The notes under the pieces: generated by a model
Databases searched by the model: none
What the model saw: the letters and a program-made list of their open reading frames with translations, nothing else
What the model was told of the DNA's origin: nothing
Part shown: piece after piece, positions 47,691 to 61,168 of the stretch
How the letters are laid out: every line of letters starts with the position of its first letter
How positions within the stretch are numbered: the first letter of the stretch is position 1
Assembly (NCBI RefSeq): GCF_900089955.1
Contig: NZ_FLQX01000134.1
Coordinates: 1-64,000 of the forward strand
Source of the DNA: Candidatus Accumulibacter aalborgensis
Lineage (GTDB): Bacteria; Pseudomonadota; Gammaproteobacteria; Burkholderiales; Rhodocyclaceae
DNA: 64,000 nucleotides
Direction of reading: 5' to 3'
Program-made: the position numbers and the translations under genes

Positions 47691-49028
47691 TCATTCTCGT
47701 GGCACGAGCAGGCTCGCCACCTCGGCGACATCCTTTTCCGATAGCACCCCGGCTGCCGTCTTGAGCTGTAGTGTGTTGACCAGATAGGCGTAGCGCGCCT
47801 GCGCGAGATCGCGCTGAGCAACGAACATCTGACGTTCGGCGTCGAGGACATCGGTATTGGTCCGAAGTCCAGCCGCCATCCCGCGCCGCATCCCTTCGGC
47901 CGTCACCATGCTGGCATCGACCGCATTGCGATACGCGGCAACTCTGCTGGCGCCCGTCTGGACAGCGAGAAACTGTCGCTCCAGTTCAACCAGAGTGTCG
48001 GTCAAGGCCCCGTCGAGTTCGGCCTGGGCGCGCTCGCGGTTGGCAATCGCTTGCCCGGTCAGGGCGTTGACTCTGCCGCCCGCAAACAGAGGAAAATTGA
48101 ATTCTACGCCTATAGCATTGGTATAGTATTTCTGGCGTGCCGTGGACAGCGTGTCACTTTCCGCTTGCGTCCCACGAGCCACGAGATCCACTTGCGGCAT
48201 ATGGCCAGCGCGAGTGCGATCCACTTCCAGACTGGCCAACTCGTAGGCCTTGCGCCGCGAGCGAATTTCCGGGTTGTTGCCGTTGGCCAGCGCAGACCAT
48301 TCGTCGAGAGACGGGGGCAGCACGCTAGTCGGCATGAAATCCGGCCGCAGTACCCACAGTGGCGCCATCGCCTTGCCGGTCATCCCTTCCAGCTTGCGCA
48401 CCGCCACCGAGAGACGGTCGACGGCATCGGCACGACCTGCTCGCGCGAGCTGCAGCCGGGACTCGGCCTCGGCGACGTCGGTGATGGTCCCCTCGCCACC
48501 CTTGCGCCTCCGTTCGGCGAGTTCGCGCTGCGATCGATAGGCGGAAATTTCCGCATCGGCAAGGGCCAGTTGATCGGCTGCATAAAGAGCGTCCAGATAG
48601 GCCCCCGAGACCTTGACCGCCAGTTCCGCCTCCTTCTTGTCGAAAACGGCATCACTGTAAGCGACCTGCACACCGCCCTGCTGGTAGCGCACGAAGCTGT
48701 CGTAATTGAAGAGCGGCTGCCGCAGCCCGAGGACGGTGTACTTTGAATTGTAGTCGAGCGACTGCTTCACGTTGGTGAATACCGTTGACGTTTGTTCGCC
48801 GGTGGTTTTCAAATAGGATCCGTTGATGGAGACGCTCGGTAACAAACCCGCAAGACCGATATCGAAGGCGTACTGGCCGGCATCACGCTCGTAGCGTGCC
48901 GCCTTGAAAGTCGGATCATTTTGCCGCGCCGCCTGATAGGCATCGAGCAGGCCGGCAGCGATCACCTCCGACGATAATAGCGCCAGCGTGCAAGCCGCCA
49001 GCGAGGCAGTCCATTTCCTCATGTTCAC
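47691..49028 (-). CDS. TolC-family outer-membrane channel of a type I secretion system
   Basis: A 445-aa protein with a signal peptide (about 1-24, ending VIAAG). Two outer-membrane-efflux repeats start LLDAYQAARQNDPTFKAARY and include SYLKTTGEQTS and RQPLFNYDSFVRY. The second repeat has NPEIRSRRKAYELASLEVDR and VEFNFPLFAGGRVNALTGQA, typical of AggC/PrtF/TolC exporters. It overlaps the HlyD gene by 4 bp (ATGA). It would form the outer-membrane exit duct for the exporter encoded just upstream. Confidence 0.93.
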   Translation of the reverse strand: MNMRKWTASLAACTLALLSSEVIAAGLLDAYQAARQNDPTFKAARYERDAGQYAFDIGLAGLLPSVSINGSYLKTTGEQTSTVFTNVKQSLDYNSKYTVLGLRQPLFNYDSFVRYQQGGVQVAYSDAVFDKKEAELAVKVSGAYLDALYAADQLALADAEISAYRSQRELAERRRKGGEGTITDVAEAESRLQLARAGRADAVDRLSVAVRKLEGMTGKAMAPLWVLRPDFMPTSVLPPSLDEWSALANGNNPEIRSRRKAYELASLEVDRTRAGHMPQVDLVARGTQAESDTLSTARQKYYTNAIGVEFNFPLFAGGRVNALTGQAIANRERAQAELDGALTDTLVELERQFLAVQTGASRVAAYRNAVDASMVTAEGMRRGMAAGLRTNTDVLDAERQMFVAQRDLAQARYAYLVNTLQLKTAAGVLSEKDVAEVASLLVPRE

Positions 49029-50383
49029 TCCTCGGTCAAAGCGGACTTCATCCGATCAAGCAGCGGTTTGAAGATATAGTTCAGCATCGTCCGCTCGCCG
49101 GTCTTGATGAATACCTCGGCGGGCATTCCCGCCTTGATCTCGTGCGTCGTCAGCTTGGTCATGCCGGCCGCCGTCACCACCACCTGGCCGCGATAGAACG
49201 GCGCTACCTTGCCCTGCGGATCGGCCGTCGCGTCGGCCGCGACCTGAACGAACTCGCCGGGAATCTGTGGCGTGGTCTTCTGGTTGAAGGCCGGAAAGGT
49301 GATTTCCACCGGCAAGCCCAGCTTGACCTTGTCGATCATGTGCGTGGGAATCTGGACATCGATGCGCAAGGGCTCGTTCTTGGGGACCACTTCCATCAGC
49401 GGCGTTCCCGAGGCCAACACGCCGCCGACGGTATGCACGTTCAAGCCGACGATGATCCCTTCGGACGGCGCGCGTACTTCGGTATTGGCCAGTTCGAAGG
49501 CGAGTCCCCTGAGGCGGTTGTCGAGAGCGCTGGTCTCCTTCTGTACTTCGGCCAGTTCCTTTTCAACCTCCTTGCGATACTCCTGCTGTCGCGCCAGCAT
49601 GCGCATCCTGATTTCGCCGATGCTCTGCTGCGTCCGGCCGATGTTGCCGATATCCTCGGAAATGGCGCCACTGAGTTGCGCCAGCAGTCGTTCCTGCTCG
49701 GAGAGTCGGTTGCGTGGCAGATAGCCCTCGGCGGCCAGTTCGCGCAGGCCCTTCAGTTCCTCGAGCAGCAGCTTCGACTGCGTTTCCTTCGCATGCCGGG
49801 TGGCCTCCAGACCGGTCACCGACGACTGCAGGCCGGTCAGCGTATTGTTCATCGCCCCGAGTTCGGCCTGCAAACCGGAGCGCCGAGAATGCAACAACTG
49901 TGTCTGCACGGCCATCGCACTGACCGCTCGCGGATCGTTCTTTTCCTGCAACAGTTCTGCGGGAAAGACAATCGTCGACTGGCCCTCGGCATCGGCCAGC
50001 AGGCGCGCCTCGGCGGCTTTCGCCACCAACCACTGACTGCGCGCTATCTCGTACTGTGAGCGCGCCGGCGTCGGATCCAGCCTGACCAGAACGTCGCCAC
50101 TCTTGACCTCGTCGCCATCCTTGACCAGGATCGCTTCGACCACGCCGACGCCGAGGTTCTGTACCGCTTTGCGATTGCCGGTCACCACCACCTGCCCGCT
50201 GGTCGGCACACCCTGGTTCAGCGGTGCCAGCGAGGCCCACAACAGGAAGCCGCCGAAGCCTATCCCCAGCACCCACAGGCCAACGCGCATGGGATGGCCT
50301 GTGTTCATCGGCGGCGCGGCTTCTCCATCGAGCGTCGTGGGCGCTGGGCCCTGGAGACGATTGAACATATTACGAATAGCCAT
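49025..50383 (-). CDS. HlyD-family periplasmic adaptor (PrtE type)
   Basis: A 452-aa membrane-fusion protein. There is a single transmembrane helix (about 33-53; VGLWVLGIGFGGFLLWASLA), then a lipoyl-like half (GVGVVEAILVKDGDEVKSGD), long coiled-coil hairpins (about 120-300), the second lipoyl half and a beta-barrel (ELANTEVRAPSEGIIVGLNV). The C-terminal HlyD signature region follows (VQIPTHMIDKVKLGLPVEIT and later PFYRGQVVVTAAGM). It bridges the inner-membrane ABC exporters and the TolC-type channel. It lies 22 bp after the nearer ABC gene. Confidence 0.95.
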   Translation of the reverse strand: MAIRNMFNRLQGPAPTTLDGEAAPPMNTGHPMRVGLWVLGIGFGGFLLWASLAPLNQGVPTSGQVVVTGNRKAVQNLGVGVVEAILVKDGDEVKSGDVLVRLDPTPARSQYEIARSQWLVAKAAEARLLADAEGQSTIVFPAELLQEKNDPRAVSAMAVQTQLLHSRRSGLQAELGAMNNTLTGLQSSVTGLEATRHAKETQSKLLLEELKGLRELAAEGYLPRNRLSEQERLLAQLSGAISEDIGNIGRTQQSIGEIRMRMLARQQEYRKEVEKELAEVQKETSALDNRLRGLAFELANTEVRAPSEGIIVGLNVHTVGGVLASGTPLMEVVPKNEPLRIDVQIPTHMIDKVKLGLPVEITFPAFNQKTTPQIPGEFVQVAADATADPQGKVAPFYRGQVVVTAAGMTKLTTHEIKAGMPAEVFIKTGERTMLNYIFKPLLDRMKSALTEE

Positions 50384-50405
50384 GACGAGGGTCCTGAATC
50401 AGAAA

Positions 50406-52133
50406 TCAAGCGGGTTGAGTGTTGGTAACGACACTATTTGCAGCAGGTACTGGTGGCTGCGCAGCCGCTAGCACCTGCTGACGTGTGCCATAAATCTGGA
50501 TCTCGCCGTTGTTCAAGACCAGTATCCGGTCTGCCACGCCGAGAATGTTCATGCGGTGGGTAATCAGAAAAACGGTCACGCCCTGCGCCTTCAGATCCTT
50601 TATGGCCACGATCAGGGCCGTTTCGCCTACATCGTCGAGATTGGCATTTGGCTCGTCAAGCACGATCAGGCTGGGATTGCCATACATCGCCCGCGCCAAA
50701 CCGATACGCTGCCGCTGGCCACCGGAAAGGAAGCTGCCGGCCTCACCCATGGGCGTATCGTAGCCCCGGGGAAAGCGCAGGGTCATGTCATGAATGCCGG
50801 TCCGTTGTGCCGCTTCGATGACCTTTGTCGGGTCAATCTCGCCGAAGCGGGCGATGTTTTCAGCCACGCTGCCTTCGAAGAGCTCGATGTCCTGCGGCAG
50901 ATAGCCTATAAAGGGTCCCAATTCTCCCCGATCCAGGCTTTCAATAGGCTTGCCATCGAGGAGAACGCTGCCCTGGACTTCCGGCCAGATTCCCACCAGA
51001 CAACGAGCCAGGGTGGATTTCCCGGACCCGGACGGGCCGACGATGGCAATGACTTCGCCTGCCGGAAACTCGGCAGACAGCCCCGCGAGGATCGGTTGCG
51101 ACCGATTCGTCGCCGTCGCCACAAGGTTCTCAATGCGCACTTCGCCCCGCAGGTCCTCGTGCACCATTCCGGCCGGCCGCTTGGGATGGTCACGCAGAAG
51201 AGCCTCCAGAGACTCGAAGGCCTTGCGGGCCGATTGCCAGCCCGACCAACTGCCGACAATGGCATCGATCGGTTGCAGGGCTCGGCTCATCAGCACATTG
51301 GCGGCAATCATTCCTCCGACCGTCAGCTCCCCCTTGATCACCAGCAGTGCGCCGGCTCCCAGCATCAAGGACTGCTGGCTGTAGCGCACGAATTTGCTAA
51401 ATGCCTGAATGCGGCGCTGTATGTCCTGCGATGCGGAATTGAGCGCCATATGCTGCTGATGGCGCGCCAGCCAACGTCGGCGCAGACCCCCGAGCATGCC
51501 GAGTGCTTCGATGACTTGGGCGTTACGCAACTTGCTGTGCAGATACGTTCCCACGGCGACACCGGCTTCAGTGGTTTTCTGCGTCGGGGCCTGGGTCTGC
51601 CGGTGGCTGAAGATGGCCAGCCCCGTCAGGATGGCCGCAAAGAGCAGGGAAAGCATTCCCAGCGACGGGTGCAGCATGAACAGCACCAGCAGGTAAATCG
51701 GCGTCCAGGGTGCGTCGAAGAAAGCGAAGATGCCATTACCCGTCAGAAACTGGCGAATGTTGGTGAGGTTCGAAAAAGCCTGGACCGGGTTGTCCCTGCT
51801 TTGATTGAGATGAGACTCAAAGCAGGCGTTGAAAACCCGGCTGCTGAGACGCTCGTCCAGGCGCACGCCGAGGCGCACCAGGAGGCGAGAGCGCGACCAT
51901 TCAGCGAAGGCCATCACGGCCAACAGAAACAGTGTGATCAGAGAAACGGCGATTAGGGTCAATTCGCTGTGGCTGGTCATGAAACGGTCATAGACCTGCA
52001 GCATGTAGATGGTGGGTGTCAGCATGAGGAGATTGATCACCAGGCTGAATATTCCCACAACCAGAAACTCCCGCCGGAAAGACCAGAGGGTGGCCGTCAG
52101 TTCGCTGCGCTGAAAAAAGGAAGGTGTTTTCAT
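50406..52133 (-). CDS. Type I secretion ABC exporter, PrtD family (second in operon)
   Basis: A 575-aa half-transporter: six-helix membrane domain (about 20-300) and ABC ATPase (about 330-560). It has Walker A GPSGSGKSTLARCL, signature LSGGQRQRIGLARAM, Walker B IVLDEPNANLD with the catalytic Glu, and H-loop ITHRM. It has no N-terminal C39 peptidase, so it belongs to the PrtD/AprD class that exports substrates with uncleaved C-terminal signals. It is paralogous to the gene immediately upstream (15 bp), and all ATPase motifs are intact in both. Confidence 0.95.
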   Translation of the reverse strand: MKTPSFFQRSELTATLWSFRREFLVVGIFSLVINLLMLTPTIYMLQVYDRFMTSHSELTLIAVSLITLFLLAVMAFAEWSRSRLLVRLGVRLDERLSSRVFNACFESHLNQSRDNPVQAFSNLTNIRQFLTGNGIFAFFDAPWTPIYLLVLFMLHPSLGMLSLLFAAILTGLAIFSHRQTQAPTQKTTEAGVAVGTYLHSKLRNAQVIEALGMLGGLRRRWLARHQQHMALNSASQDIQRRIQAFSKFVRYSQQSLMLGAGALLVIKGELTVGGMIAANVLMSRALQPIDAIVGSWSGWQSARKAFESLEALLRDHPKRPAGMVHEDLRGEVRIENLVATATNRSQPILAGLSAEFPAGEVIAIVGPSGSGKSTLARCLVGIWPEVQGSVLLDGKPIESLDRGELGPFIGYLPQDIELFEGSVAENIARFGEIDPTKVIEAAQRTGIHDMTLRFPRGYDTPMGEAGSFLSGGQRQRIGLARAMYGNPSLIVLDEPNANLDDVGETALIVAIKDLKAQGVTVFLITHRMNILGVADRILVLNNGEIQIYGTRQQVLAAAQPPVPAANSVVTNTQPA

Positions 52134-52148
52134 GTTCGGCCGTAGGAA

Positions 52149-53885
52149 TCAAACGACGGGAGCGGCAGCGAGGCCGCTCTGGGCGGTGGCGGCTTGGGCC
52201 GCCGCCTTGTTGAGAGCCGCCAGCACCTCGTCGCGAGGCCCGGCTATCTGTACCTGTCCTTCGCGTAATACCAGCATCAGGTCCGCAGCAGCGAGGACGC
52301 TGATGCGATGGGTGATGACGATCAGCGTGCTGCCTTGTGCCCTGAGCGCCAGCAATGTGTTCACCAGCGCCACTTCTCCGGCCTCGTCGAGGCTCGAATT
52401 CGGTTCATCTAGAACGATGAATTCTGGTCTGCCATAGAGCGCGCGCGCCAGCCCCACCCGTTGACGCTGGCCGCCGGAGAGAAAGCAACCGTCATCGCCG
52501 ATGAGCGATTCGTACCCTTCAGGCAGCGCGATGATCGCGTCGTGCACGCCGACCGCACGCGCAGCCGCTTCCACCTTCGCGCTGTCCACCTCGCCGAAAC
52601 GGGCGATGTTCTCGGCGAGCGAGCCATCGAAGAGTTCGATGTCCTGCGGCAGATAACCGATATGAGGCCCCAGTTCCGCCTTGTTCCAGGGGTAGATGTC
52701 CACGCCATCGAGTCGCACCTTGCCACTAGCGGAAGGCCAGATACCCACCAGCAGGCGCGCCAGCGTCGACTTTCCCGAAGCCGAAGGGCCGACGATGGCC
52801 ATAATGCATCCAGCAGGCACAGCGAAGGAAACCCCGCGCAGGATCGCAACCGGGCTACCCGGGGCTGAGGCGATCAACGCTTCAACAGAGAGATTGCCCT
52901 TCGGCGGTGGCAGGGGCATGCCTTCCTGACGTTCGGGCAGCCCCTGCAAGAGCTTGTCGAGCCGGTGATAGGCGTCGCGCGCATTGACGACGTTCTTCCA
53001 GAGGCTGACCACCTGGACCAATGGCGCCAGTACCCGCGGTCCGAGCACCCAGGCGACGATCATCATGCCACTGCCGCCAGCCAGTTCTCCCTTCAATGAC
53101 AGCCAGGCGCCCGTGCCGAGGAGGGCTGCCGAGAGGGTGGTCTGCAGCATCTTGGAGAGCGAGGCATTGCCGCCCGCATGATCCGACGCTTCTGCCTGCA
53201 GGCGCAGGAAGTTGTGCTGCTTTTTCATCCAGCGCTGATGAATGCTGCGCAGCATTCCCATGGCCTCGATCACCTGTGCATTGCGCAGACTGCCGTTGGC
53301 ATAGTTCTGGGCGGCGATGGCTTCTCTTTGCGCGGCCACCAGAGGCGGCTGGGTGTTCTTTTCGGTGAGATAGGTGAGAAAGATCTGAATCACGGCGGCG
53401 AGCACCGAAATCCAGCCCAGCAGCGGATTTATCAGATAGATCAGAATGAGAAACAGCAGCGAAACCGGCGCGTCCATCAGGGCCATCAGGGCTGGCGTTG
53501 CCAGAAAGTCCCGGATGGTGCGCAAGTCGTTTAGCCCCTGGCTGGTGCCGCCGGGAATGCGCCGCAGGTTGGCTTCGAAAATCGCGTTGAAGACCCGCTC
53601 GCGGAGTTTCCGATCCAGAGCCAGGCCGGCTTGATGCATCACTCCAGCGCGTGCCCACTCCAGCAACTCCATGATTATATAGAACCACAGCACGAGCAGG
53701 GTCAGCATGAGCAAGGTGTACGAACTGCGACTGTTGATGACTCGGTCGTACACCTCGAGCATGTAGCCGGTCGGCGCCAGAATCAGCAGGGTGCAAAAGA
53801 CGCTGAACAAAGCGGCCTTCATGAAGAAGGGTTTCAGCTCGCGGATGGCTTCCCGGAGTTCCGAGCGGGTTTCAGCAGGATTCAT
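52149..53885 (-). CDS. Type I secretion ABC exporter, PrtD family (first in operon)
   Basis: A 578-aa half-transporter of the PrtD class: membrane domain (about 25-310; ALFSVFCTLLILAPTGYMLE) and ATPase (about 335-560). Walker A is GPSASGKSTLARLL, signature LSGGQRQRVGLARAL, Walker B IVLDEPNSSLDE, H-loop ITHRIS. The ATG at 53885 is preceded by GAGAG; a GTG one codon earlier is possible. It could homodimerise, or pair with the neighbouring paralogue as a heterodimer. Confidence 0.95.
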   Translation of the reverse strand: MNPAETRSELREAIRELKPFFMKAALFSVFCTLLILAPTGYMLEVYDRVINSRSSYTLLMLTLLVLWFYIIMELLEWARAGVMHQAGLALDRKLRERVFNAIFEANLRRIPGGTSQGLNDLRTIRDFLATPALMALMDAPVSLLFLILIYLINPLLGWISVLAAVIQIFLTYLTEKNTQPPLVAAQREAIAAQNYANGSLRNAQVIEAMGMLRSIHQRWMKKQHNFLRLQAEASDHAGGNASLSKMLQTTLSAALLGTGAWLSLKGELAGGSGMMIVAWVLGPRVLAPLVQVVSLWKNVVNARDAYHRLDKLLQGLPERQEGMPLPPPKGNLSVEALIASAPGSPVAILRGVSFAVPAGCIMAIVGPSASGKSTLARLLVGIWPSASGKVRLDGVDIYPWNKAELGPHIGYLPQDIELFDGSLAENIARFGEVDSAKVEAAARAVGVHDAIIALPEGYESLIGDDGCFLSGGQRQRVGLARALYGRPEFIVLDEPNSSLDEAGEVALVNTLLALRAQGSTLIVITHRISVLAAADLMLVLREGQVQIAGPRDEVLAALNKAAAQAATAQSGLAAAPVV

Positions 53886-53954
53886 CACGACTCTCGCAGA
53901 ATGTCAAAAAAGGCCAGATGGCCTGTCCTTCAGCAGGTGGATCGAAGAAAAGGC

Positions 53955-54578
53955 TCACGACAGGCCGGCTGGGGCTACTTCCGGATCGGCTGAGTGCACC
54001 AGTACATATTCCGGCATCTCGGCGGCAAGATCTGCCGGCCTTTCCTCATCTTCCTCCGCCATCACCAGGCAGAAGGAAAGCTGATAGCCCTGCGGCGTGC
54101 GTGCGAGGACGATCTCCCGCAACCTCTCCTGATGGAAACGCAATTCATCCTCAGCCTTCAGTGACAACTGGAAACGCATACGTCCGTCGAGGGTGTACAT
54201 CGAGAGCAGGCCATCCTTGAGGCTGAGCGTATGCCGGTCAAAATAGACCGGGGCGCTGGGCAGAAACTGCAGGAGAGGCAAGGGACGTTCCGGATAGCGC
54301 GCGACGTTGAACGGGCTATCGGGGTGTTGTAGGACGACCCGACAGGTGCGAGAAACCGAATAAATGGCATTGCAGACCATCTGCGATCCGATCTGAGGAA
54401 AGCGCTGACGCAGGTCATGGTAGGCGATGTGGTGCAGCGTTACCCGGTTCCAGCATCGGGTCTGCTGCACCAAGGGTGCCAGGGCATTGCATACTTCCGC
54501 GAAAGCCAACTGCAGTGCCTCTAGGCGCGCAGTCTGCTCGGGCGAGGTGTTCAGAAGAAGATGCAGCGGCGAGTTCAT
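53955..54578 (-). CDS. TnpB-like N-terminal-domain-only protein heading the secretion operon
   Basis: A 207-aa protein matching the N-terminal half of IS605-family TnpB/OrfB proteins. Residues 12-80 have the helical region (PEQTARLEALQLAFAEVCNA, then LHHIAYHDLRQRFPQIGSQM). Residues ~105-175 have the beta-barrel/wedge pattern (VYFDRHTLSLKDG, then LDGRMRFQL and QGYQLSFCLVMAEEDEE). A normal TnpB would now enter RuvC-I (GVDLG-type); here the chain ends after ~30 unrelated residues. No RuvC or zinc-finger sequence exists downstream, where the ABC exporter starts 69 bp later. Nuclease activity is therefore impossible. As the first gene of the export operon, with a palindrome at its promoter, a regulatory role is a plausible inference. 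Confidence 0.7.
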   Translation of the reverse strand: MNSPLHLLLNTSPEQTARLEALQLAFAEVCNALAPLVQQTRCWNRVTLHHIAYHDLRQRFPQIGSQMVCNAIYSVSRTCRVVLQHPDSPFNVARYPERPLPLLQFLPSAPVYFDRHTLSLKDGLLSMYTLDGRMRFQLSLKAEDELRFHQERLREIVLARTPQGYQLSFCLVMAEEDEERPADLAAEMPEYVLVHSADPEVAPAGLS

Positions 54579-54610
54579 ATAGGAAATTATAACACTCTCT
54601 CCTATATGAA
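54574..54610 (-). promoter_or_regulatory. Perfect 11-bp inverted repeat around a -10 box, overlapping the start codon
   Basis: TTCATATAGGA (54574-54584) and TCCTATATGAA (54600-54610) are exact inverted copies with a 15-nt spacer. Inside, on the minus strand, lies a consensus -10 TATAAT (54586-54591), and the start codon of the TnpB-like gene is within the proximal arm. Seven bases separate TATAAT from ATG, so the message would be leaderless or nearly so. No good -35 is visible. The layout suits an operator. Confidence 0.7.
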
Positions 54611-54978
54611 AAGGCAGGCATCAGTGAAAAGAAGCGATGGCCACGAAACCCCCTTTACTTGCTCCAGTTCATCTACTAAAACAAGACAAGCATGAGGGCC
54701 TCACGCTGAAGTCGCCTCTTGCCGGTAAACGAGCGTGGACAGAGGGGTGGCTCCGCTTGCATCTCGTGGCCGGGCGGTAGTGGGAATTTCCCGGCAATCG
54801 CTCTGAAATTTTGACCGGGCCAGAGGATTCCAGACAGTCCATTGTGATGTCCTACACGGATCATCCCAACAGTTCGTTCGTCAGCGGGTGGACCGAGGTC
54901 AACGTCGAACCGGACTTGACGCAGGCCGGGCTAGAGTACATGCCAAAAGCGTAAGCACGCATTGTAAGGAGCAGTCAA
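54611..54978 (+). other. Divergent intergenic region with an RTX C-terminal-tail relic
   Basis: About 54870-54954 reads in plus frame as [20 protein letters not shown], then PKA-stop. Its end closely matches the last residues of the downstream RTX protein ([16 protein letters not shown]-stop). It is therefore probably the remaining tail of an older RTX-type gene. The rest shows no gene; a small palindrome GGGAATTTCCC lies near 54781-54791. The promoter of the RTX gene should be here. Confidence 0.55.
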
Positions 54979-56292
54979 ATGGCAACCTTGAGCTTTACAA
55001 CCACCAACTGGGCGCCCTGGTTTGCGACCCCCAATCAACTTGCTGGTCAGCTTTCCGAATCTGTGGTGAGGACAGTCCACTTGATCGATGAATTGGACGT
55101 CGTTTCCGAGACTCTGACGCTCACCAGCTACCATGCCGAATTCGACAACGGAGGAGTCGTCGACATCAGCGGCTCCGGGTTGGACACCGATCGACAGGTC
55201 ATCGTTGGCATCACTTACTCGGATCCCTCCGGGAATTCAGTGTTTCTGGCCGGCAACTTGACGGTCGATATTAACGATGGGAGCGCCTCTGGCGCTATGT
55301 CCGACTTCCACTTCAGGTTTACTGGCCTGGAAATGGCGGCAGCAGGAAGCTTTAGCCTTGATCCTAATGGACATGGTTCTGGCAGTTTTAGTCAAGTGAC
55401 GTACAAGCAATCCGGCTGGACATTGCAGGTTGGAGGCAACGTGACCTATAGCGGATCGCAGGCCAATGGGACCCTGAGCTACCTCACTGGGACATCGCCG
55501 CAGGGCGATTCTTTTTCGATAAGCGATTCGGCCAAACTCACGGCCCCCATCCTCAACGGCATTGCGAGCACGGGCAAGGGGATGGGATTCTTTCTCTCGG
55601 AGAGCTTCCTCGATGGCAATGACACCATGACTGGAGGTGAGCGCAATGATCAGTTCAGTGGCTATGCAGGCGACGATGTCCTGCGGGGGGGCGGTGGTAA
55701 CGACACACTGGCCGGCGGTGCCGGTAACGACACGCTCGATGGCGGCAGCGGCATCGACAGCGCGGTGTTCAGCGGCAGGTTTGCCCGGTACACGCGGACC
55801 ACTACCGGCGGCTCGCAGACCGTCCTGGATAATGCCGGCACCGACGGCCGCGATACCCTGTTCAACGTCGAGCGGCTCAAGTTTGCCGACGAGAGCATTG
55901 CTCTCGATGTCGCCGACGGCGATGCTGGCACGACGGCCAAGATATTGGGTGTGGTCTTCGGGCCGCCTTCCCTGGCCAACAAGACTTTCGTCGGCATTGG
56001 CCTTGCCCTGCTCGACGGGGGCATGAGCTACCCGGATTTGATGATGGCAGCGCTGACAGCGAAGCTGGGCGGTCATTTTTCCAACGCGGCGGAGGTGGAC
56101 CTACTGTATGAGAACCTTTTCGGACATGGCCCGACCTCGGCCGAAGCGACGTTCTGGTCCAAAGCCATCGATGCCGGCCAGTTCTCCCAGGCTTCCCTGG
56201 CCATCGCCGCCGCCGAACTCGGCATCAACGCCAGCAACATCGACCTGGTAGGCTTGACGCAAGCCGGTCTGGAGTACCTGCCACAAAGCTGA
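54979..56292 (+). CDS. RTX repeat protein, predicted type I secretion substrate
   Basis: A 437-aa protein with no N-terminal signal peptide. Residues ~1-210 are beta-rich and unrecognised. Residues ~213-265 hold Ca2+-binding RTX nonapeptides ([28 protein letters not shown]). After ~60 residues with [16 protein letters not shown], a typical post-RTX module, comes a C-terminal DUF4214-like helical region (about 310-437) ending [16 protein letters not shown]. Such proteins are exported through PrtD/HlyD/TolC systems by C-terminal signals, and the matching system is encoded divergently next door. Confidence 0.88.
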
Positions 56293-56432
56293 GCACCTCG
56301 TCGTCGGGCTACCGCCGTGCCCCTGGTTCCCAGCGCACGCAGCGCCAGTCAAGGCCTTGTGATTGTGCGCACATCGCACCCACTGGCCAATGACGTATCC
56401 TTGCGGCTATTGAATCTCAAAGGATCGCCACG

Positions 56433-57698
56433 GTGAACAGGCTGCTTTGCCGAAGCTTGCGCTGGGTGGTGGTGATGTGGGCACTGCTGATATCGGCAGT
56501 GTGCGCGGCCGCCTCGGTCGGCGAAGTGACCCTCAGCATCGGCACCAGCCAGATTGAGCGCGAAGGCAAGGGCCAGCCGGTCGTAAAGGGATGCGACATT
56601 GCCGCCGGCGATGTTATCCGCACCACCGCTAACGGCCATGTGCACATTCGCTTCGTCGATGGCGCGCGGGTCAGCGTGCGGCCGGATTCGGTGCTGCACG
56701 TCGTCGAATACCGCTACGACCCGGCCGATCCCGCCGAATCCCTGATCAAGTTCCACCTCGAAGCGGGAACGGTTCGTGGCATCTCCGGGCTGGCGGCACA
56801 AGTGGCCCGCGACAAGTTCCGCCTGAACACGCCGCTGGTGGCCATTGGCGTCAAGGGAACCGACTTCGTCACCCAGGCCACCGCGAATAGCGCCATCGTC
56901 CTGGTAAACCAGGGCGCCATCGTTCTCGCGCCGCTCGACAGCGCCTGCCGTGCCGAAGGTTTTGGTCCCTGCGGCACCTCCCGTTCGCGGGAACTCGCGA
57001 GCAGCATGAACGGCATGAACGGCATGGCCCTGGTCTATCGCCAGGCAGCGTCGGAGCCGGTGTTCCAGCCAGTCAATTCGCTGAAAGGGACGGACAAGGT
57101 CACCCCGATCCTGCAGCAGGAGCGTGTCGGTAGCGCCACTACGGCGACCGCCGTGGCGGACAGTCGCAACCCGGGAGCGGTGATGGATGTGTTGGCGCCC
57201 CGCAGCACTCTGGTCTGGGGCCGCTGGGCTACCAACGCCGTGCCGGGTGACGATTTGACCACCTCCTTCATGGAGGCGCTGAGCGGCAACAAGGTCACCG
57301 TCGGCGATGGCTACTACTTCCTGTTCCGCAACGAGAATGCTCCCAATTTCCTCAGTACCGCAAGCGGCGTGACGAATTTCCGTCTGCAGAGCGGCGCAGC
57401 CTCTTACCGCGACCCGTCCAACACGCTGGTGGCGGCGAGCATAAATGGCGGCTCGCTGAGCATCGATTTCGGCCGCCGCACCTTCACCACCCAGCTCGCT
57501 GTCACGGCGCCGAGTATTGGTACGCAGGGGGTGGCGGCTTCGGGAACGATCGACCCCAGTACCGGAATCTTCCTCAGCACGACCACTGGTGCGCGGGTAG
57601 CCGGCGCCGTGTCCCTGGATACCAGCCAGGCCGGTTATTTCTTCAGCAAACCCGTGGGGAATGGCGTCTTGACGGGCGCCACCCTCTGGGGCCGCTGA
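56433..57698 (+). CDS. Exported FecR-domain protein
   Basis: A 421-aa protein from a GTG with AAAGGA upstream. It has a signal peptide (about 1-27, ending AVCAAAS), a FecR domain (about 45-160; AAGDVIRTTANGHVHIRFVD, then FRLNTPLVAIGVKGTDF), and a long C-terminal beta-rich part (about 230-421) of unknown role. FecR domains occur in envelope signalling or surface-assembly proteins. The gene stands 18 bp before the cyclase gene, implying co-expression. Confidence 0.85.
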   Translation: MNRLLCRSLRWVVVMWALLISAVCAAASVGEVTLSIGTSQIEREGKGQPVVKGCDIAAGDVIRTTANGHVHIRFVDGARVSVRPDSVLHVVEYRYDPADPAESLIKFHLEAGTVRGISGLAAQVARDKFRLNTPLVAIGVKGTDFVTQATANSAIVLVNQGAIVLAPLDSACRAEGFGPCGTSRSRELASSMNGMNGMALVYRQAASEPVFQPVNSLKGTDKVTPILQQERVGSATTATAVADSRNPGAVMDVLAPRSTLVWGRWATNAVPGDDLTTSFMEALSGNKVTVGDGYYFLFRNENAPNFLSTASGVTNFRLQSGAASYRDPSNTLVAASINGGSLSIDFGRRTFTTQLAVTAPSIGTQGVAASGTIDPSTGIFLSTTTGARVAGAVSLDTSQAGYFFSKPVGNGVLTGATLWGR

Positions 57699-57716
57699 GA
57701 GCATCGCATCGCGTCC

Positions 57717-59714
57717 ATGACGGTCCATTTCAGACAATTGTTCCGGCGATTCGGGATCAAGGTGGCGGTATTGACCAACGGCCTGCTGCTGAGACCGGCG
57801 CTTTTACGCCTGTGCGCCCTGCTTGCCGCCACGGCGCTGACGCTGGTGGCGAGCGGCCTGTGGGGACCACAACTGTCTCAACTGGACGAACTTTCCGCCA
57901 GTCTATCCTGGCGCATGGCTGACCCGGAGGCGACAGAGCGCCGTGTCGTGGTCGTCGATATCGATGAAAAAAGCATCCAGGCGATCGGTACCTGGCCATG
58001 GCCACGCGCCCGCCAGGCCGAGTTGCTGGAAAAGCTGGATCAGGCAGGCGTCGGCCTGAAAATCCTCGACATCGTGTTCGAAGGACCCAACCAGGACGAT
58101 GCGCGCCTGTCGCGCGCGCTGGCCAGTCCGGCGCCCGCCGTCCTGGCCCAGTTGTTCTCCCTGTCGCCTGAGCTGCCAGTGCATAGCGGCCGGCTGGCCG
58201 GGGCACTGCCTTTCGCCGCCTGCCCATCGGCGACCGAGCTGGCTTACGGTTACATGGCCGCCGACGCTGGCCTTGCCCCGGCTTTCGCCGGCCATATCAC
58301 CCCGTGGGTGGACCCCGACGGCGCGATCCGTCAGGTGCCGGCGCTGATCTGCCATGACGGCAAGACCTACGCTTCGCTGGTCATTGCTGGCGTCATGGCG
58401 GCGAGCGGCGCCGAGCCGCGGCTGCGTCCCGGCGCATCGCTGCTCGATCCGCCCTGGTGGCTTGACCTGGACGGCCTGCGTCTGCCACTGGACCGTGCCG
58501 GTTACCTGCGCGTGTCTTACCAGATGCCGCGCGCTGGCTTCGTCTCCATCTCCGCTGCCGACGTGCTGCAGGGGCGGGCCCCCACCGATCTGCTCCAGGG
58601 CGCCTGGGTGCTGGTCGGCGCCACCGCCTTCGGCGCCCGCGACGCGGTCCCTACCCCGCAGGGGCGCGCCGTCAGTGGCGTCGAAGTGCACGCCCAGTTG
58701 CTCTCCGCCATGCTCGACGAGCGCACCCCTTACGCGCCGCAGGGCGCTCCCCTGTGGCCCTGGCTGGCTGGCGGCCTCAGCGCGCTCCTCTTGCTTGTCG
58801 TTTTGCGCCTGGCGCCGCGCGGCCCGGCGATCGTCCTTCCCGCCGTTGCCGCTGCGAATGTCCTGGCACTTTTTGCGCTCAGCACCTTTTTGCTGCTCGA
58901 CCAGCATCTGTGGCTGGGCTGGGTCAATGCAGGCCTGTTCACAGGGTTTGCCGCCACCTTCCTCGGCGCGGGCGAATTCGCCCGTGTCCGCCGCGAACGC
59001 GAGCGGCTCTACCGCCACCTCGCCAGCTACCTGCCCGAACCGGTGGCGCGCGAAGTGGCCATTCAGGAGCCCTGTGCCCAAGTGCGCGCGACGCGCCGCG
59101 AAGCCACCGTACTCTACGCCGACCTGCGCAACTTCTCCGCCTACTGCGCCGGCCGTCCGCCGGAGGAAACCGCGATGGTGCTGCACCTCTTCTTCACCAC
59201 TGCCAGCCGTATCGTAGAGGAGTATGGCGGAGTGGTCGAACAGATGGTCGGGGACAGCGTGCTGGCGGTCTGGAACGGATCAGCACCCTGCGCTGACCAT
59301 GGCGCCCATGCGCTTGATGCCGCGGCTGCGCTGTGGCAGGCGTGCGCGCCGCAGTTGCCGCGCATTGCCTCACGCCAGGTGCCGCCGCTCGATCTCGGCA
59401 TCGGAGTCGAAACCGGCAGCGTCCTTATCGGATCTTTCGGGCCGCTTGCCAGGCGTACGCACGCCGTGCTGGGCGAGGCGGTGACCGTCGCGACCCGTCT
59501 GCAGGCGCTCACCGGCGAACTGGCCCAGCCGATCCTGATCGGCGCGGCCGTGGCGGCAGTCTGTGCCGAGCGGGGCCGCACCCATTGCATAGGCAATTTC
59601 CTGCTGACCGGACTGACGGCGCCGCGCATGGTGTATGCGCTGCCTGTAAAATACGCTCCTGGCCATCTGCGCCTCGTCTTCGAGATGGAAGCCGAGCAGC
59701 GGGCTGCCGGATGA
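57717..59714 (+). CDS. CHASE2-domain class III nucleotide cyclase
   Basis: A 665-aa membrane protein. One TM helix at about 28-48, an extracytoplasmic CHASE2 sensor (about 55-330; RRVVVVDIDEKSIQAIGTWP, then RQAELLEKL), then three TM helices (about 340-420). The cyclase domain (about 455-640) has VLYADLRNFSAY and VGDSVLAVWNG, supplying both metal-binding Asp residues. In the distal motif the usual GDxVN...R reads GEAVTVATRLQ, so the transition-state Asn is Thr and a substrate-reading Asp is Glu. Activity or substrate may differ from ordinary adenylate cyclases. It is co-transcribed with the FecR gene by position. Confidence 0.88.
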   Translation: MTVHFRQLFRRFGIKVAVLTNGLLLRPALLRLCALLAATALTLVASGLWGPQLSQLDELSASLSWRMADPEATERRVVVVDIDEKSIQAIGTWPWPRARQAELLEKLDQAGVGLKILDIVFEGPNQDDARLSRALASPAPAVLAQLFSLSPELPVHSGRLAGALPFAACPSATELAYGYMAADAGLAPAFAGHITPWVDPDGAIRQVPALICHDGKTYASLVIAGVMAASGAEPRLRPGASLLDPPWWLDLDGLRLPLDRAGYLRVSYQMPRAGFVSISAADVLQGRAPTDLLQGAWVLVGATAFGARDAVPTPQGRAVSGVEVHAQLLSAMLDERTPYAPQGAPLWPWLAGGLSALLLLVVLRLAPRGPAIVLPAVAAANVLALFALSTFLLLDQHLWLGWVNAGLFTGFAATFLGAGEFARVRRERERLYRHLASYLPEPVAREVAIQEPCAQVRATRREATVLYADLRNFSAYCAGRPPEETAMVLHLFFTTASRIVEEYGGVVEQMVGDSVLAVWNGSAPCADHGAHALDAAAALWQACAPQLPRIASRQVPPLDLGIGVETGSVLIGSFGPLARRTHAVLGEAVTVATRLQALTGELAQPILIGAAVAAVCAERGRTHCIGNFLLTGLTAPRMVYALPVKYAPGHLRLVFEMEAEQRAAG

Positions 59715-59806
59715 GCCCGGAAATCGCGGGTAGCCCATAACGCATTCCCCGGGCGACGCTTTCGCCTGAAGTCATCGACGATGAAACCCGCATCGACGCG
59801 GCCAGC

Positions 59807-61168
59807 ATGTTGACTTTTTTCCGCCACTTCCCTGGACGGGCCCTGCTGTGCGTGATCGCCCTGTGGGCCTCTTCTGCCGGACCGGCATCCGCGGCTGAGC
59901 CCTCCGCCGACGCACCCTGTCCCCCGTCCTTTCGCCCCCAGCCACCAACGGACGCGGCCCTGCGCGAGGCCGAAGTCGCTCGCCTCGCCACCCTGACCGA
60001 GGCCTGCCACGACCGGGCCGACTATTTTGCCTATCAGGGGATGCTGCTGCTGACCCTCGGTCGCCTCCAGGAAGCGGCGCTCGCGCTGGAGAAAGCCGTG
60101 CTCCTCGATCCCGACCTGGCCGGTGCTCAGCTCGATTACGCGCAGGCGCTGGCTCAACTGGGCGAACTCGATTCCGCCCGTAGCCTGGCTGGTGAGGTGG
60201 CGAAGCGCCCCGATATCCCGATTGCGCTGCAGGCCTGGCTTTACGACAGCCTCGGCGCCTGGCAGGAAGACGGCTGGCGCCTGGAATGGTCGATTGCGCT
60301 GTTGGGGGGCGGCGAATCGAATCTCAACAGCGCACCGGGAATCCAGTTCCTGACGCTGACCCTGCCCGGCGGCAGTGTCCCGGTGGAACTGGCCGCCAGT
60401 GAGCAACGCCGTTCGGGCGGCGCGCTGCGTACGGCGCTGATCGGCGCCGCCGCTCGCTCCCTGGGCAGCGGACTCGTCGTCATCAGCGGCGAAATGACCA
60501 ATCGCAGCAGCCCGAGCGAGGCCGACACGAACCAGAGGATAGTCAATGGCAACGCCGCCTACGTTCATCCCGCCTTGGGGGGGCAGATGGGCGTCCGGGT
60601 GGACCAGACCCGGCTGTGGCTGGGCGGCGAGGTGACTTACCACAGCAGCGGCTGGAGCCTGCTCTTCGAGCTGCCCCGCCAGCTTTCCCCGGTAGGCTGC
60701 GCCATTACCCTGGGCTATGGCGCCGAAAACCGCGAGTTCCCCCGTTCCACGCTCCAGGACGGCCGTTATTCCGGCCCCCAGGCCTGGCTGGCGTGCCGCC
60801 ACGAAGACTGGCAACTCTACCTCGGCGCGCAGAACGGCGAAGACCGCGCAAGCGACGCCGCCCGCCTGGGGGGCGACCAGCGGCGCACGGACCTCACCCT
60901 CGGCGTCGGCCACCGCCTCGGTCAGGATACCGTTTTTGTATCGGCCCAGCGGGGCAGGGCCGTCGACCAACTGCCCTACAGTGCCCTGCTGGGCGGTCAG
61001 GCACGCCAAATAGATCGCCTTTCGGGTCGCGTTGCCTACGAATTTCCCTATACGAATCAGTTGTCTATCGTCGGTTACCTTGAAAGCACATCACAAAAAA
61101 GCAACATCGATCTGTTCAACATGGATAATAAGGCGATATACTTCGGCGTCAGGTTTCGCGGCCGATAA
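59807..61168 (+). CDS. TPR plus outer-membrane beta-barrel protein (Slam-like architecture)
   Basis: A 453-aa protein with a signal peptide (about 1-30, ending SAAEP). TPR-like repeats occupy about 65-150 (YFAYQGMLLLTLGRLQEAAL, then LDYAQALAQLGELDSAR). The rest (about 170-453) alternates polar/hydrophobic strands with aromatic girdles, as in an outer-membrane barrel, ending YFGVRFRGR. TPR followed by a barrel is the layout of surface lipoprotein assembly modifiers, but family membership is not certain. The position between the FecR/cyclase genes and the S-layer-like gene suggests a role in surface display. Confidence 0.65.
   Translation: MLTFFRHFPGRALLCVIALWASSAGPASAAEPSADAPCPPSFRPQPPTDAALREAEVARLATLTEACHDRADYFAYQGMLLLTLGRLQEAALALEKAVLLDPDLAGAQLDYAQALAQLGELDSARSLAGEVAKRPDIPIALQAWLYDSLGAWQEDGWRLEWSIALLGGGESNLNSAPGIQFLTLTLPGGSVPVELAASEQRRSGGALRTALIGAAARSLGSGLVVISGEMTNRSSPSEADTNQRIVNGNAAYVHPALGGQMGVRVDQTRLWLGGEVTYHSSGWSLLFELPRQLSPVGCAITLGYGAENREFPRSTLQDGRYSGPQAWLACRHEDWQLYLGAQNGEDRASDAARLGGDQRRTDLTLGVGHRLGQDTVFVSAQRGRAVDQLPYSALLGGQARQIDRLSGRVAYEFPYTNQLSIVGYLESTSQKSNIDLFNMDNKAIYFGVRFRGR

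What the first reader, a model, noticed from the sequence alone, without database searches (positions are those of the whole stretch)
53955..54578. TnpB N-terminal domain kept without the nuclease, as first gene of a type I secretion operon
The 207-aa product follows the TnpB/OrfB plan through the helical and beta-barrel parts (LHHIAYHDLRQRFP at residues 48-61, FDRHTLSLKDG 113-123, DGRMRFQL 131-138) and then ends just where RuvC-I should begin. It is not obvious debris: the frame is clean over its whole length, it has a sharp promoter/operator, and it leads the operon. TnpB-derived nuclease-dead repressors (TldR) that control neighbouring genes are known, but they keep a dead RuvC. A form with no RuvC at all tied to surface-protein export would be a distinct type of exaptation.
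Basis: partly seen in the sequence, partly recalled or inferred. Interest (0 to 1): 0.78.

Follow-up and report, generated by a model that had tools for sequence, protein, structure and literature searches.

The report
TnpB half turned operon regulator
A gene that is only the DNA-reading half of a jumping-gene nuclease, with no cutting part and no sign of a guide RNA, has most likely become a switch protein that controls a bacterial protein-export operon.

Summary
The finding is real. The 207-aa gene encodes the REC+WED half of a TnpB and stops just before RuvC-I. It is not debris: 87 relatives were found, 80 kept, mostly betaproteobacteria by record title. In 78 of 80 loci it directly precedes a PrtD gene of a tandem-PrtD type I secretion operon; the other two run off the contig. 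Nine pairs give dN/dS of 0.04-0.16.

An 11-bp motif, TTCATATAGGA, sits at the operon promoter, usually as an inverted pair around the -10 box with the start codon inside one copy. 80 of 84 promoters have it, against 0.5% in shuffles. In 1.26 Mb, 123 exact sites lie in these promoters and one elsewhere. None of 17 PrtD loci lacking the gene has it.

The nearest full-length TnpBs found belong to IS elements whose readable left ends sit at TTCAT (6 of 6 insertions). By the ISDra2 rule that is their TAM. The operator begins with those bases.

Best reading: a TnpB lost its nuclease and guide RNA, and its TAM-reading domain became a protein-only autoregulator, probably a repressor, of a secretion operon. 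DNA binding is inferred, not shown.

The parts
53955..54578 (-). 207-aa TnpB-derived REC+WED protein without RuvC or zinc ribbon; proposed operon autoregulator
54574..54584 (-). operator half-site TCCTATATGAA containing the start codon ATG (reads TTCATATAGGA on the other strand)
54600..54610 (+). second operator half-site, in inverted orientation (TTCATATAGGA in the direction of the gene)
54586..54591 (-). perfect -10 box TATAAT between the two operator sites; implies a leaderless or nearly leaderless mRNA (inferred). The consensus promoter scan found no full sigma-70 match here.
   Evidence: sequence; relatives; negative scan
52149..53888 (-). PrtD-type type I secretion ABC ATPase/permease, first of two
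   Evidence: (TIGR01842)
50406..52133 (-). PrtD-type type I secretion ABC ATPase/permease, second of two
   Evidence: (TIGR01842)
49025..50383 (-). HlyD-type periplasmic adaptor
   Evidence: (TIGR01843)
47691..49028 (-). TolC-like outer membrane efflux protein
   Evidence: PF02321; one gene family recurs at the corresponding position in 39 of 58 loci (not itself searched against a library)
54979..56292 (+). divergent RTX-repeat protein, a likely secretion substrate (inferred)
   Evidence: PF00353; DUF4214 below its cut-off

Best explanation
The gene is the TAM-reading half (REC helices plus WED barrel) of an IS200/IS605-type TnpB that lost its RuvC nuclease, zinc ribbon and guide RNA and was domesticated, probably once, in a betaproteobacterial ancestor. 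It now works as a protein-only DNA-binding autoregulator of a tandem-PrtD type I secretion operon. It recognises TTCATATAGGA, whose first five bases are the ancestral TAM TTCAT. Usually two copies face each other across the -10 box, and one covers the transcription start and start codon. Binding would block RNA polymerase, so the protein would repress itself and the exporter genes that are co-transcribed with it. Shown: homology, loss of RuvC, conservation, operon linkage, the operator and its co-occurrence with the gene. Inferred: direct binding, repression as the sign, RNA independence, and the identity of the ancestral TAM.
For: Homology: tblastn to TnpBs E=1e-20, hhalign 99.8%, Cas12f/TnpB fold, family clade 100/99 on the TnpB trees. 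Purifying selection: dN/dS 0.04-0.16 in nine pairs. Linkage: PrtD follows in 78 of 80 loci; overlap or gap of at most 30 nt in 69 of 76 measured. Operator: 80 of 84 promoters, 68 with two or more sites, 62 with the start codon inside; 123 exact sites in these promoters and 1 elsewhere; only two exact copies in the own genome. The exact inverted pair occurs in 3 of 399 genomes of the order, all three at this gene, and never in the reversed control. None of 17 PrtD loci without the gene has the motif. No upstream neighbour family is shared by more than 6 of 55 loci. TAM: 6 of 6 readable left ends of the nearest TnpB elements abut TTCAT; one of these TnpBs carries the same GSQMVCNAIYSV helix as the family. 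In ISDra2 TnpB the TAM is read by REC and WED (PMC10097598, section 11 read). Little is conserved upstream of the operator in four Accumulibacter-type copies.
Against: No binding or expression data. Four of 84 promoters (L055, L064, L107, L108) have no site within one mismatch, and 12 have only one site. Site order varies: of 68 with two or more, 50 inverted, 12+4 direct, 2 everted; G147 carries the gene but not the exact inverted pair. Most PrtDs of the 17 loci without the gene are more distant (43-59% identical to the window's), so part of the contrast could reflect a different exporter lineage. No empty site was found to fix the TAM/left-end border. The G196 element, whose TnpB is among the closest, does not show TTCAT at the expected place. 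A pentamer match anywhere in an 11-mer on either strand would occur by chance about 1.4% of the time (14 of 1024, my arithmetic). Of the seven ISDra2 TAM contacts only Y52 and Q80 align with confidence, and Q80 is replaced by C. Whole-protein charge is not positive (19 K+R, 24 D+E). The Rfam negative carries no weight: a control on four true TnpB elements of this group also found no guide RNA.
Confidence: 0.76

Rival explanations
1. It is an RNA-guided regulator like TldR, using a guide RNA encoded elsewhere, with the motif as TAM plus seed match.
For: Same ancestry; TldRs are TnpB-derived regulators beside non-transposon genes (PMC13418256, passages seen). The operator begins with a TAM-like TTCAT. 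The Rfam search cannot see guide RNAs of this group, so it does not speak against one.
Against: RuvC, which with WED forms the omega-RNA scaffold surface (PMC10097598 passages), is absent. The gene overlaps or lies within 30 nt of prtD in 69 of 76 loci, leaving no room for an RE-derived 3' guide. Only 1-9% of columns upstream of -40 are identical in four Accumulibacter-type copies. The 11-mer is nearly fixed across about twenty named genera, which suits protein reading of the sequence.
Confidence: 0.1
2. A different, trans-encoded regulator binds the operator, and the TnpB-like protein does something else in secretion, for example acting as a chaperone or RNA-binding protein.
For: No binding test exists. 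The family has a conserved C-terminal P-E-Y tail of unknown role.
Against: Motif and gene co-occur (80 of 84 with, 0 of 17 PrtD loci without). The motif has a single exact target region in the own genome, unlike global regulators. No other conserved upstream neighbour. The protein is the DNA-reading half of TnpB, and the motif holds the nearest TnpBs' insertion-site pentamer.
Confidence: 0.12
3. It binds the operator as in the best explanation, but as an activator or a dual regulator rather than a repressor.
For: The sign is not shown; direct-repeat and single-site arrangements exist.
Against: In the common arrangement one site lies in the promoter spacer and the other on the transcription start and start codon, a geometry that usually blocks polymerase (general knowledge).
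Confidence: 0.15
4. It is a decaying IS fragment.
For: It lacks RuvC and the zinc ribbon, as truncated TnpBs do.
Against: Intact frames, low dN/dS, conserved operon position and operator in about twenty named genera.
Confidence: 0.01

Closest known systems
TldR (TnpB-like nuclease-dead repressors)
   Same: Domesticated TnpB beside non-transposon genes with a regulatory role, here only proposed (PMC13418256, passages).
   Different: TldR keeps an inactivated RuvC and is guided by RNA. Here RuvC is absent, no guide RNA is evident, and a nearly fixed 11-bp operator is present.
IS200/IS605 TnpB of the Methylomarinovum / G915 / G196 / MT839988 group
   Same: N-terminal half 33-53% identical to family members; the G915 protein has the same GSQMVCNAIYSV helix.
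   Different: These are full-length, with RuvC and TNB domains, in transposons; tnpA is annotated beside the Methylomarinovum gene, and the readable insertions sit at TTCAT.
Cas12f, nuclease-dead Cas12f included
   Same: Same N-terminal fold.
   Different: Cas12f has RuvC and works with guide RNA.
Autoregulated one-component repressors of the TetR or MarR kind (recalled)
   Same: Small first gene of the operon it probably controls, with inverted operator sites over the promoter.
   Different: DNA would be read by a TnpB REC/WED cleft instead of a helix-turn-helix.
PrtD/HlyD/TolC type I secretion systems
   Same: The operon genes match TIGR01842, TIGR01843 and PF02321.
   Different: Two PrtD genes in tandem, led by this regulator candidate.

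Membership tests
TnpB | REC+WED N-terminal half | tested here: met
TnpB | RuvC nuclease domain and TNB zinc ribbon | tested here: not met
   Protein ends before RuvC-I; no TnpB-related Pfam family in any of 73 members, only 16 unrelated weak ones
TnpB | omega RNA at the 3' end of the gene and RE element | tested here: inconclusive
   No room for an RE: gene overlaps or lies within 30 nt of prtD in 69 of 76 loci. Rfam finds nothing in window 48500-58500 but also misses the RNAs of four true TnpB elements
TldR | RuvC kept but inactivated | tested here: not met
   RuvC absent
TldR | associated guide RNA with RNA-guided target | tested here: inconclusive
   No sign of one; a trans-encoded RNA cannot be excluded without RIP-seq
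TldR | stable linkage to non-transposon genes | tested here: met
   PrtD follows in 78 of 80 loci
Autoregulatory operon repressor | conserved operator in its own promoter, co-occurring with the gene | tested here: met
   80 of 84 with, 0 of 17 without the gene
Autoregulatory operon repressor | direct operator binding and repression | not testable with these tools
   needs EMSA and reporter assays
Dead IS fragment | frameshifts, scattered positions, relaxed selection | tested here: not met
Type I secretion system (PrtD/HlyD/TolC) | ABC ATPase, adaptor and outer membrane channel genes together | tested here: met

The most novel reading that the evidence does not exclude
The TAM-reading half of a TnpB has become a free-standing, RNA-independent transcription factor: RuvC and guide RNA are gone, the operator still begins with the TAM of its transposon ancestors (TTCAT), and specificity was extended to 11 bp and doubled into an inverted pair that controls a type I secretion operon across many betaproteobacterial genera. 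PAM/TAM recognition would thus be able to evolve into a stand-alone DNA-binding domain.
Probability: 0.68. Interest if true: 0.92.

Novelty: categorically new. Interest (0 to 1): 0.87.

Why it matters
The TnpB-derived regulators that I know of are RNA-guided. A RuvC-less, guide-less descendant would show that TAM recognition alone can be turned into ordinary sequence-specific gene control, giving a DNA-binding fold not known to me among transcription factors. It also makes testable how the TAM-reading cleft of TnpB and Cas12 achieves specificity without RNA, since here evolution has isolated that cleft, kept it in about twenty named genera and left its target sites readable. It further names a likely regulator for a widespread tandem-PrtD type I secretion operon. 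The rating 'categorically new' is for this mechanism, which is inferred; TnpB domestication as such is known. Nine searches of the open PMC library listed no paper describing it (listings only, partly capped at 10 to 20 rows); most subscription papers and bioRxiv are not in that library.

Tried and rejected
Pfam, NCBIfam, PHROGs and PDB sequence searches with the single protein or the family profile found nothing relevant; these negatives do not refute TnpB ancestry because tblastn, hhalign and Foldseek are positive. Viral contigs gave no relative of the protein; the predicted viral structures gave one match with E<=0.001, a TnpB-like transposase. A search for TnpBs close to Methylomarinovum in 369 class genomes gave none at E<=1e-25, and viral contigs gave two distant or no hits, so the insertion motif was read from G168, G295 and G915 elements. 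Of the element copies looked at, L159 (no left end found), L158 (masked), L153 (left end unclear, GTCAT-like), L156 and L112 (an IS4-family transposase gene ends just upstream of tnpA and no left end was recognised) were not counted among the 6 readable insertions; L150 and L151 share their left flank and count once. A correlation between operator position-9 variants and protein residues gave only two weak positions and was dropped. A second tree without three long or odd rows gave the family plus near-TnpB group only 76/60 (84/88 in the first tree), with the family itself at 100/99 in both. The Rfam negative was dropped as evidence after a control failed; this lowered the main confidence from 0.78 to 0.76. 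Dropped rows: 8 of 80 loci were left out of alignment A1 (5 partial or odd, 3 over 93% identical to another), 4 loci with short upstream sequence and 4 duplicates of 92 were dropped, 17 of 18 PrtD loci without the gene were examined (G123 was not fetched); one search measured the gap to prtD in 76 of 80 loci. In one search, 39 of 150 genomes matched at E<=0.01, but only 12 strongly (E<=1e-36); the other 27 have best E-values of 4.5e-6 or weaker and were not counted.

Full report
What is there. The ORF at 53955-54578 lies on the minus strand and encodes 207 residues without a stop. The source is not named; the closest named relatives are three Candidatus Accumulibacter copies at 79-81% identity.

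TnpB ancestry. Curated family libraries and PDB sequence searches find nothing relevant. tblastn against 72,556 plasmid records hits 19: 16 annotated TnpB, 2 'transposase' and 1 unannotated. The best is the TnpB of Methylomarinovum tepidoasis, beside tnpA, at 38% and E=1e-20. A profile of 73 family members against that protein gives 99.8% probability over 165 columns. The alignment stops directly before the GVDVG of RuvC-I. The AlphaFold2 model is good (pLDDT 89), and all 8 Foldseek PDB matches with E<=0.001 are Cas12f (TM-scores on the query 0.44-0.60); ranks 9 to 27 are further Cas12, TnpB, Fanzor and TranC chains. On the trees the family is one clade at 100/99, grouped with the TnpBs of Methylomarinovum, G196, G915, MT839988 and G295 with moderate to weak support (84/88; 76/60).

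It is a conserved gene. A scan of 84,980 species genomes matched 119 stretches; 87 encode a relative and 80 loci were kept, with about twenty genera named in the titles. PrtD follows directly in 78 of 80, a second PrtD in 75 and HlyD in 72; the loci that miss one end within 0 to 3,046 bases after the gene. One gene family at the TolC position recurs in 39 of 58 loci, and no upstream neighbour family is shared by more than 6 of 55. Nine close pairs give dN/dS of 0.04-0.16. In 150 genomes of the family, 12 carry the gene with E<=1e-36, all 12 beside a PrtD; 18 others have such a PrtD (E<=1e-150) without it.

The operator. In the window TCCTATATGAA occurs at 54574-54584 (minus strand, start codon inside) and 54600-54610 (plus strand), with TATAAT between them. 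These are the only two exact copies in the 4.7-Mb genome; copies with one mismatch (7) are no more frequent than in the reversed control (21 matches). Of 84 promoters of the family, 80 have a site with at most one mismatch, 73 an exact one, 68 two or more, and 62 one with the start codon inside; dinucleotide shuffles give 0.5%. The inverted arrangement dominates (50 of 68), 38 of these 26-28 bp apart. In 80 loci (1.26 Mb) there are 123 exact sites in these promoters and one elsewhere. Bases 2-8 of the motif do not vary among 165 sites with up to two mismatches (sites were chosen by similarity and include related loci, so this is partly by selection). In 64 of 64 promoters with a site at the start codon (counted without collapsing overlaps, hence 64 and not 62) a -10-like hexamer lies just upstream, against 31% in mononucleotide shuffles. 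The exact inverted pair occurs in 3 of 399 genomes of the order, each at this gene; G147, which has the gene, carries a direct-repeat form instead. None of 17 PrtD loci lacking the gene has the motif; these PrtDs are 43-59% identical to the window's. The operator therefore appears to travel with the protein, not with the exporter.

Link to the TAM. In ISDra2 the target motif TTGAT used for insertion is also the TAM (PMC8612924, passages). It is read by Y52, S56, K76, F77 and Q80 of REC and T123 and N124 of WED (PMC10097598, section 11). If this family is a stand-alone TAM reader, its operator should contain the TAM of its nearest TnpBs. In six of six insertions with a readable left end (three in G168, two in G295, one in G915) the left end abuts TTCAT, after otherwise different flanks. 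The operator begins TTCAT. The G915 TnpB has CWNRVALHALAY...LGSQMVCNAIYSV where the family consensus has CWNRVALHHLAY...LGSQMVCNAIYSV. Y53 and C69 of the family align with Y52 and Q80 of an ISDra2-type TnpB by two methods; the other contacts do not align with confidence. Limits: no empty site was found in 10 and 61 genomes, the G196 element does not show TTCAT, and a chance match of a pentamer anywhere in the motif is about 1.4%.

No sign of a guide RNA. The stop codon overlaps or lies within 30 nt of the prtD start in 69 of 76 loci (in the window the gap is 66 nt). Four Accumulibacter-type copies share 1-9% of columns upstream of -40, against 47% in the operator stretch and 70% in the gene. 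The RuvC half of the omega-RNA surface is missing. Rfam finds nothing in 48500-58500, but it also finds no guide RNA in four true TnpB elements, so that negative is uninformative.

Mechanism. In the common arrangement one site lies in the promoter spacer and the other on the transcription start and start codon. The simplest reading is that the protein binds both, excludes RNA polymerase, and so represses its own operon, that is, the exporter. What relieves it is unknown; the conserved C-terminal tail around P189 and Y191 could be where a signal acts (speculation).

Comparison and novelty. It fails a defining feature of TnpB (RuvC) and of TldR (a dead RuvC kept; a guide RNA is not evident), so it is filed under neither, though it shares their origin and, with TldR, the presumed role. 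Nine literature searches in open PMC listed no such protein.

Noticed in passing
window 54916-54954: A short stretch just before the RTX gene encodes a C-terminal end ([12 protein letters not shown], then stop) like that of the RTX protein itself ([12 protein letters not shown]), apparently a remnant or duplication.
   Followed up: no
window 56433-61168: FecR-domain, CHASE2-cyclase and TPR genes beside the operon; relatives of one or more of these also lie near several family loci, for example L033, L055, L071, L085, L097, L107.
   Followed up: partly
L153, about 20 nt before the TnpB start: The full-length TnpB of G196 has TCTTTATATGAA upstream, sharing the operator core TTCATATA; it may hint that the ancestral TnpB already regulated itself (chance about 1%, my estimate).
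   Followed up: no
L073, L075, L080, L091: Family members with a C-terminal extension to 290-317 residues.
   Followed up: no
L075 and L080: Two copies of the gene on two contigs of one MAG (A1_bin-794).
   Followed up: no
L150 (MT839988.1): Record named 'Bacteriophage sp.' looks like bacterial DNA with a citrate-synthase-like gene, an IS605 element and a reverse-transcriptase-like ORF (gene names other than TnpB judged from the translations, not searched).
   Followed up: partly
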